DNA from: Parelaphostrongylus tenuis
Taxonomy: Eukaryota > Nematoda > Chromadorea > Rhabditida > Metastrongylidae
Assembly: GCA_019055375.1 (NCBI GenBank)
Contig: JAHQIW010007095.1
Span: forward strand, 1-64,000
DNA length: 64,000 nucleotides
Direction: 5' to 3'
Below, in pieces: positions 1,286-1,578 of this stretch (the first letter of the stretch is position 1; each line of letters opens with the position of its first letter). Both the position numbers and the translations under genes were made by a program. A model generated the notes under the pieces. It searched no databases. It had not been told where the DNA came from and saw only the letters and a list, made by a program, of their open reading frames with translations.

Positions 1286-1578
1286 GATTTAATCTGATAA
1301 GGATATGACATATTTTGAGCCATAGGTCTAGTGCTATATAGGCGCCTATTTCGTCCTATTGGGACTCATCAGTAGCACCCTCCCTCGATTCCGTTGATCC
1401 CTTGAGGTGAAATAATCCTCTAAAGGAATCGACGCCGAGTAAAAACTAAGCACCCAAAGTAGGACGATGGTATTACCTGACTTTGTGGTGGCCGGCGAGT
1501 CCCAATAGGACGAAATAGGCGCCTATATAGCACTAGACCTATGGCTCAAAATATGCCATATCCTTATCAGATTGAATC
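1286..1578. mobile_element. Foldback element with 82-bp inverted arms carrying a hammerhead ribozyme
   Basis: The arms 1286-1367 and 1497-1578 are inverted repeats of 82 nt that differ, by my reading, at two positions. They are separated by a 129-nt centre with no open frame. Each arm holds the stem II, GAAA, stem III and 3' stem I parts of a hammerhead ribozyme. Only the left side completes the core into the loop. The high arm identity suggests recent formation or gene conversion. No transposase is present, so it would have to be moved in trans. Confidence 0.85.
1331..1378 (-). ncRNA. Hammerhead ribozyme, type I layout, all core residues present
   Basis: Read on the minus strand from 1378 to 1331. 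Stem I 5' strand is GUGCUA (1378-1373). The core CUGAUGA is at 1372-1366. Stem II is GUCC-CAAUA-GGAC (1365-1353), and GAAA is at 1352-1349. Stem III is AUAGGC/GCCUAU (1349-1338), a 6-bp palindrome with no loop. The cleavage-site base is A1337, followed by the stem I 3' strand UAGCAC (1336-1331), which pairs perfectly with GUGCUA. Known hammerheads of Penelope-like elements and retrozymes also have very short or loopless stem III and may act as dimers. The predicted cut lies between 1337 and 1336. The right arm of the same element has CCGGCGA (1492-1498) in place of the core and is probably dead. Confidence 0.88.

What the first reader, a model, noticed from the sequence alone, without database searches (positions are those of the whole stretch)
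1331..1378. Hammerhead ribozyme with intact core inside a foldback element
Minus strand 1378-1331 has CUGAUGA, GAAA, a 4-bp stem II, a 6-bp palindromic stem III and a 6-bp perfect stem I around a UA cleavage site. Seen directly. Known: hammerheads occur in Penelope-like elements and retrozymes. Here the host is an 82-bp-arm foldback with no coding capacity. A ribozyme straddling the arm/loop border, cutting near the hairpin base, could process or circularise its own transcript (inference).
Basis: partly seen in the sequence, partly recalled or inferred. Interest (0 to 1): 0.9.

Follow-up and report, generated by a model that had tools for sequence, protein, structure and literature searches.

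The report
Nematode retrozyme inserted head to head
The hammerhead ribozyme is real and belongs to a small RNA-circle transposon (a retrozyme) of a nematode worm, and the hairpin around it looks like the scar of how such elements are copied into chromosomes from both sides of a cut, as Penelope-type retrotransposons seem to be.

Summary
The ribozyme is real: window 1378-1331(-) matches Rfam Hammerhead_1 at 29.5 bits (E 5.4e-5 in 1 kb, below the gathering score of 34), and 76 intact copies lie in the window and 38 sister loci. It is not in a foldback transposon but in one unit of a ~284-nt retrozyme family of a nematode genome.

The "foldback" is one insertion flanked by a target-site duplication: an antisense block joined head to head to a sense block. 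Of 40 elements, 29 are antisense-then-sense and none the reverse; 28 of the 29 have one 3' end at u34-54 and one at u87-107; 25 of the 29 have duplications of 9-18 bp. Penelope-like elements (PLEs) of this genome show the same order (20 of 22 neighbouring GIY-YIG pairs) and one longer and one shorter end (7 of 7 pairs). Published PLE biochemistry fits: both strands cut and extended, two internal start sites.

Best reading: PLE machinery reverse-transcribes the retrozyme RNA circle from both target ends at two fixed sites. In this copy the foldback would bury the ribozyme. PMC7229834 left the mobiliser of animal retrozymes open. No RNA data were available.

The parts
1331..1378 (-). type I hammerhead ribozyme, predicted cut between 1337 and 1336
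   Evidence: Rfam RF00163 29.5 bits, E 5.4e-5; motif read directly
1247..1496 (-). antisense block: about 250 nt of the 284-nt retrozyme unit, from u~91 (3' end, distal start site) round to u~121
   Evidence: blastn to a real monomer from L016, 97% over 1247-1501
1497..1579 (+). sense block, u254 to u~52 (3' end, proximal start site); carries a 5'-truncated hammerhead
   Evidence: blastn 98%; the blocks overlap by 5 nt at the junction
1234..1250 (.). left copy of the target-site duplication TTGATTCACTAGTTTGT
   Evidence: score 11 over 17 letters, 2 mismatches, so a less clean duplication than most of the set
1572..1588 (.). right copy of the target-site duplication TTGAATCACTACTTTGT, overlapping the element end
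1283..1303 (-). proximal reverse-transcription start region (u34-54) as it lies in the antisense block, mostly in a predicted hairpin loop
   Evidence: end positions; circular fold; place in the window by arithmetic

Best explanation
The element is a metazoan non-LTR retrozyme. Multi-unit copies are transcribed, their hammerheads cut the RNA into 284-nt monomers, and these are closed into circles (taken from the published model; not shown here). A Penelope-like enzyme cuts both strands of a target with a ~13-nt stagger leaving 3' overhangs. Each target 3' end pairs with 0-7 nt of the RNA at one of two fixed places, ~u34-54 or ~u87-107 (mostly u87-96), each largely in the loop of a hairpin next to the ribozyme. 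One end takes one place and the second end takes the other. Reverse transcription runs from both ends round the circle for a part of a turn to several turns, and the two cDNAs are joined 5' to 5' with little or no homology. The result is an insertion with two outward-facing 3' ends, one ~50 nt longer than the other, flanked by a duplication. Shown: the architecture, the two end classes, the duplications, the shared letters at the ends, and the same architecture in PLEs of the genome. Inferred: the stagger and overhangs, the circle as template, the PLE as enzyme, both cDNAs on one RNA.
For: Dispersed and tandem copies of 284 nt. Of 40 elements in 39 loci, 29 are antisense-then-sense and 0 the reverse (L021 counted as two adjacent elements); 28 of the 29 have one proximal and one distal end. 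In a second query, 14 further loci with both strands all had the same order and 12 of the 14 had one end of each class. Target duplications at score 9 or more: 30 of 40 elements against 16 of 1560 cross-paired flanks; among the 29, 25, all of different sequence, mean 12.9 bp. The duplication continues the unit by 2.16 nt per end on average (50 ends) against 0.41 when duplications are swapped between loci (1200 ends). Sense and antisense blocks of one locus share family variants: 30 of 270 comparisons discordant, against 11865 of 33763 between loci. Both start regions lie largely in loops of adjacent hairpins in the circular fold, z -4.05. PLEs here: of 22 neighbouring GIY-YIG pairs within 6 kb 20 diverge and none converge; 7 of 7 pairs with both ends listed have one long and one short end; L070 has a 14-bp duplication, one end with a ~46-nt tail and one without (read by eye). 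Published: a lizard PLE enzyme cuts and extends both strands and starts inside the RNA at two neighbouring sites.
Against: No RNA data: neither cutting nor a circle is shown. The enzyme is inferred from likeness of insertions; the retrozyme unit gave only chance matches to 12 PLE loci and shares a CAGTCG in register near the distal start, a run that shuffles reach in 171 and 158 of 5000 trials. The two end classes were defined after seeing the data. Exceptions to the one-of-each rule: L035 (u252/u87), C4489 and C4864 (both proximal). Eleven of 40 elements are single-orientation. Four of 29 have no convincing duplication (L021a, L025 at a contig end, L029, L045). L029, L041 and L044 carry 26 of the 30 sense/antisense discordances, so their blocks may come from different RNAs, and in L018 units of one orientation disagree in 15 of 34 comparisons, which one circular template would not give. 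By plain identity the two arms of the window copy are no closer to each other (0.962) than to other loci (0.965); over all loci it is 0.977 against 0.970. PLE L078 has a sense end 41 nt short of the usual one. The published in vitro work saw no difference in start site between the strands.
Confidence: 0.72

Rival explanations
1. A foldback or MITE-like DNA element that carries a ribozyme, whose hairpin transcript is processed or circularised by it.
For: 83-nt arms, 98% complementary, ribozyme at the arm/loop border.
Against: No fixed termini shared by both sides: ends fall in two different unit regions, the blocks run from a fraction of a unit to several units, and junctions differ between loci. 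The predicted fold buries the ribozyme.
Confidence: 0.03
2. Head-to-head blocks arise by self-priming: the cDNA or RNA end snaps back and copies itself, as proposed in 2013 for PLEs on an antisense template (PMC3846280, passages seen).
For: Explains inverted repeats; proposed in print because palindromes lie at PLE junctions. Seven of 30 junctions here join unit positions within 25 nt of each other.
Against: A snap-back junction should join about the same unit position on both sides. Here the two 5' ends look unrelated (for example u121/u254 in the window, u252/u50 in L010); the 7 of 30 within 25 nt compare with 5.4 expected at random. It also does not give a duplication whose two ends each match a different start site.
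Confidence: 0.07
3. The same two-sided priming, but driven by a LINE in the manner of L1 twin priming.
For: Twin priming of LINEs also puts 3' ends outside (recalled); the window carries a LINE-type endonuclease-reverse transcriptase piece.
Against: No poly(A) or simple-repeat 3' end in the boundaries printed; start sites are internal and of two classes; PLEs of the genome show the same order and one-long-one-short rule. LINE insertions of this genome were not examined.
Confidence: 0.13
4. Two independent insertions side by side, or later inversion of part of a tandem array.
For: L021 does appear to hold two adjacent elements.
Against: One duplication encloses both blocks at 25 of 29 elements, order is never reversed within an element, and blocks of one locus mostly share variants.
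Confidence: 0.05

Closest known systems
Metazoan non-LTR retrozymes (Cervera and de la Pena 2020, PMC7229834; parts 1-4 of 6 read)
   Same: Type I hammerhead, 284-nt unit within the published 150-450 bp, tandem copies, GC 43.7% (published below 50%), target duplications longer than 4 bp, stable predicted circle, short helix III with a tetraloop.
   Different: Host is a nematode, a phylum not among those named in the parts read (which add 'among others'). Most insertions are head to head with two end classes; the words inverted, opposite and antisense occur 0 times in that paper's main text.
Penelope-like elements with GIY-YIG endonuclease (PMC3846280, passages; PMC11167929, parts 1-3 of 4)
   Same: Head-to-head blocks, target duplication, a tail (30-40 nt in print; ~46 nt in the PLEs and ~50 nt in the retrozyme here) at one end, hammerhead upstream of two internal start sites, tandem units.
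   Different: No ORF; only chance sequence matches to 12 PLE loci of this genome; a full hammerhead instead of the minimal PLE form; the unit is far shorter than the 1.3-kb PLE 3' part compared here.
Twin-primed (5'-inverted) LINE-1 insertions (recalled, no paper read)
   Same: Second target end primes internally on the RNA, so 3' ends face outward within one duplication.
   Different: There it is an occasional by-product beside a poly(A) start; here it is the majority form and both starts are internal sites.
Schistosoma W elements with hammerheads (PMC8490949, passages)
   Same: Short tandem repeats with hammerheads, hints of mobility.
   Different: No head-to-head rule or paired end classes in the passages seen.

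Membership tests
Metazoan non-LTR retrozyme | Type I hammerhead with intact core | tested here: met
   29.5 bits, below gathering score 34; 76 intact copies
Metazoan non-LTR retrozyme | Tandem units of ~150-450 bp, dimers to multimers | tested here: met
   284-nt period, six and more units in L016 and L029; the window copy itself is less than one full unit per strand
Metazoan non-LTR retrozyme | Dispersed copies with target duplications, low GC, no ORF | tested here: met
   GC 43.7%; no ORF of 130 aa or more in this stretch
Metazoan non-LTR retrozyme | No LTR, primer-binding site or polypurine tract | not tested
   no search made for these
Metazoan non-LTR retrozyme | Expressed as linear and circular RNA, self-cleaving | not testable with these tools
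   no RNA data held
Penelope-like element (autonomous) | RT plus GIY-YIG ORF | tested here: not met
   284-nt unit; no ORF of 130 aa or more at the window copy
Inserted by PLE machinery (mechanism, not membership) | Head-to-head blocks, one end with tail and one without, target duplication | tested here: met
   for the retrozyme; for PLEs of the same genome (duplication read in one PLE, L070)
Inserted by PLE machinery (mechanism, not membership) | Recognition of the retrozyme RNA by the PLE protein | tested here: inconclusive
   only a shared CAGTCG in register near the distal start, 171 and 158 of 5000 shuffles as good; a shorter run in the window PLE, 582 of 5000
Foldback DNA transposon | Same terminal inverted repeats in all copies | tested here: not met

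The most novel reading that the evidence does not exclude
Animal retrozymes are parasites of Penelope-like elements, and both integrate by a distinct route, paired target priming: the two 3' ends of one staggered cut start reverse transcription at two different hairpin loops of a single circular RNA, so that a head-to-head double cDNA is the normal product and the so-called PLE tail is simply the distance between the two start sites. If so, the retrozyme is the minimal RNA signal for PLE integration.
Probability: 0.53. Interest if true: 0.85.

Novelty: new variant of a known kind. Interest (0 to 1): 0.72.

Why it matters
The 2020 description of animal retrozymes names PLEs only as a strong candidate mobiliser, and the 2024 PLE biochemistry leaves the later steps of insertion to be validated. 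Insertions of a 284-nt non-coding RNA that carry PLE-like insertion marks tie the two together. They also offer a geometric explanation for the head-to-head form and the one-sided tail of PLEs, and a very small RNA with which to test it in vitro. In the full-text searches made here (open-licence PubMed Central only) the listings and the papers opened showed no description of head-to-head retrozyme insertions or of nematode retrozymes; most listed papers were not opened. Two further papers on PLE structure and PLE hammerheads were not held, so they may contain relevant facts.

Tried and rejected
Foldback transposon, self-priming, adjacent double insertion: see rivals. Sequence kinship of retrozyme and PLE: blastn of the unit against 12 PLE loci gave only 12-13-nt chance matches; the in-register CAGTCG is weak. 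Covariation of the hairpins across 19 diverged hammerhead loci was looked at by eye in an alignment and not pursued, because many of those loci end inside the hairpins; one T-A to C-G exchange was seen (L065). The ribozyme in the predicted circle: stem II 98-99%, stem I about 2% in favour of another pairing, so the circle may shield it; not pursued. Plain identity of blocks separates same-locus from other-locus pairs only slightly, so shared variants were used (segments under 93% identity to the reference and pieces under 40 columns were left out there). The first TSD table used blast ends only; replace it. In one search I dropped secondary fragments in L032, L043, L045 and L046 before counting; the L045 fragment proved to be its antisense block and was put back (28 became 29 antisense-then-sense elements). 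One cross-paired control scored 29; I did not look up which (perhaps the two neighbours in L021). The older fragment in L046 (280-575) is also antisense-then-sense but is in no end count. One search did not list all its 168 matches, so single-orientation loci there were not counted.

Two further searches (PLE subfamily L070, retrozyme subfamily L049) and one with window 59700-60300 did not complete.

Full report
WHAT IS THERE. Rfam's type I hammerhead covers it end to end at 29.5 bits (E 5.4e-5 for 1 kb), short of the gathering score of 34; of ribozymes the whole-window scan therefore lists only a different hammerhead at 59951-59993. Stem III is weaker than claimed: the palindrome closes at most 4 bp round a GCGC loop, and the hammerhead fold is about a tenth of the ensemble. 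Short helix III capped by a tetraloop is as described for animal retrozymes (PMC7229834, parts 1 to 4 of 6 read).

WHOSE GENOME. The window is contig C4788 of a genome held as 481.5 Mb in 5105 contigs. An ORF at 7900-8565 encodes an endonuclease-reverse transcriptase piece whose best relatives are from Parelaphostrongylus tenuis (84%), Angiostrongylus and Necator. I take it as a nematode, probably metastrongyloid; this rests on one transposon protein and the species is not established.

THE ELEMENT. A 301-base query round the ribozyme matches 123 places, which I group into 39 loci; the first look had 2380 candidates of which 40 were scored, so the family is probably larger. Several loci are tandem arrays with a 284-nt period. 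I number a real monomer from L016 from the predicted cut, u1 to u284. The window copy is 1247-1496 antisense (u91 round to about u121) followed by 1497-1579 sense (u254 to u52). Intact hammerheads: 76 in the window and 38 other loci, 75 of them identical. The Rfam model finds 31 hammerheads in the genome, 20 over the cut-off, with 74 of 119811 candidates scored. The 20 places fetched (two of them the same sequence) and the second hammerhead of the window fall into one single-linkage cluster with the unit, though part of that linkage may run through the ribozyme itself; L055, L057, L058, L059, L061, L063 and L065 match the unit at 86-94% over 296 nt or more. By eye several diverged ones end at the same two regions.

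ARCHITECTURE. Of 40 elements in 39 loci (L021 counted as two adjacent ones), 29 are antisense then sense and 11 have one orientation; none is sense then antisense (corrected). The outward 3' ends of the 29 fall at u34-54 or u87-107, one of each in 28; L035 is the exception (classes set after seeing the data). Of these, C3537a and C3537b, and C1553 in the first set, look alike and may be copies of one insertion. Flanking duplications score 9 or more in 30 of 40 elements, against 16 of 1560 left-right flank pairs taken from different loci. In the 29 they do so in 25, with 25 different sequences, 9 to 18 bp long, mean 12.9. The duplication continues the unit by 2.16 nt per end on average, against 0.41 with duplications swapped between loci. 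So most of these are single insertion events in which both target ends touched the RNA. In the window the duplication is 17 letters with 2 mismatches.

WHICH TEMPLATE. At 12 informative columns, antisense and sense blocks of one locus disagree in 30 of 270 comparisons (19 of the 30 in L029; none in 13 of 20 loci), units of one orientation within a locus in 43 of 664 (18 in L029, 15 in L018), and different loci in 11865 of 33763. The window's blocks did not enter this test, and by plain identity its arms are no closer to each other than to other loci (0.962 against 0.965). On the whole the two blocks of a locus thus come from the same RNA or the same source, with exceptions. Their inner 5' ends look unrelated: 7 of 30 junctions lie within 25 nt, 5.4 expected, and 26 of 30 have gaps or overlaps between -6 and +16 nt, the rest being L025 (40), L029 (-21), L042 (209) and L045 (56). 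This speaks against snap-back copying. The unit folds as a circle far better than shuffles (-84.6 against -63.7, s.d. 5.2, 100 shuffles), and both start regions lie largely in the loops of two neighbouring hairpins, with small stems inside them (one sequence, no covariation test).

THE PENELOPE LINK. GIY-YIG endonuclease matches (150 scored of 1723 candidates) mark many PLEs; among neighbours within 6 kb, 20 of 22 point away from each other, one pair is ++ and one --, none point toward each other. In a DNA search with a PLE 3' part (40 of 5259 candidates scored), seven loci list both ends and in all seven one end runs on to the end of the query, through a tail, and the other stops before it. 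L070 shows a 14-bp duplication, a tailed end and a tail-less end, read by eye; L078 has a tailed end and a second end 41 nt short of the usual one. PLEs here carry what I read, from recall of the published motif, as the minimal hammerhead upstream of the two ends; in L070 I count about 58 and 105 nt from its cut to the two ends, against about 41 and 91 in the retrozyme. In print, PLE copies are most often head to head with a tail optionally on one of the inverted repeats (PMC3846280, passages), and a lizard PLE protein cuts and extends both strands and starts at two neighbouring internal sites whose spacing is the tail (PMC11167929, parts 1 to 3 of 4). The retrozyme follows the same pattern without coding anything. 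PMC7229834 calls PLEs a strong candidate mobiliser.

HOW IT WORKS. See the best explanation. The paired-site rule is most simply met if both target ends prime on one RNA in one complex; two RNAs with fixed roles are not excluded. In the window copy the inverted arm is predicted to pair with 37 of the 48 ribozyme letters in a minus-strand transcript, so this copy is more likely a silent scar than an active ribozyme; expression would come from tandem copies (inference).

LIMITS.

Noticed in passing
window 59951-59993 (-): A second type I hammerhead, above Rfam's gathering score (35.5 bits), with a different sequence, next to a directly repeated stretch at about 60000-60038 and downstream of a PLE tail end. 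Its own family was not searched for because the request did not complete.
   Followed up: partly
window about 60182-60669 (-) and 61635-62931 (+): What looks like a decayed PLE of a different subfamily in head-to-head form: hammerhead-like pieces on both sides (degenerate on the right), tail-like sequence at the left end only, and a weak 9-letter flanking repeat CATTATAGA/CATCATAGA (ends judged by eye).
   Followed up: partly
window 7900-8565 (+): ORF of 221 aa, piece of a LINE-type endonuclease-reverse transcriptase, 84% identical to a Parelaphostrongylus tenuis protein.
   Followed up: no
window 16172-16876 (-): Overlapping ORFs made of a repeat of roughly 27 residues (around SKQPNPSRSLPIEDRADHAANEHALR), perhaps a minisatellite (by eye).
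   Followed up: no
window 6423-6485, 6502-6566, 7723-7797, 34436-34507, 45815-45886: Five tRNA-model matches (31.7-45.7 bits), possibly tRNA-derived SINEs.
   Followed up: no
L016 monomer: In the predicted circular fold hammerhead stem I has about 2% probability while stem II has 98-99%: the circle may hold its own ribozyme inactive.
   Followed up: no
L018 1996-2937 and L029: Units of one orientation within these loci differ at family variants (15 of 34 and 18 of 225 comparisons), as if more than one template had been used or the arrays had been rearranged later.
   Followed up: no
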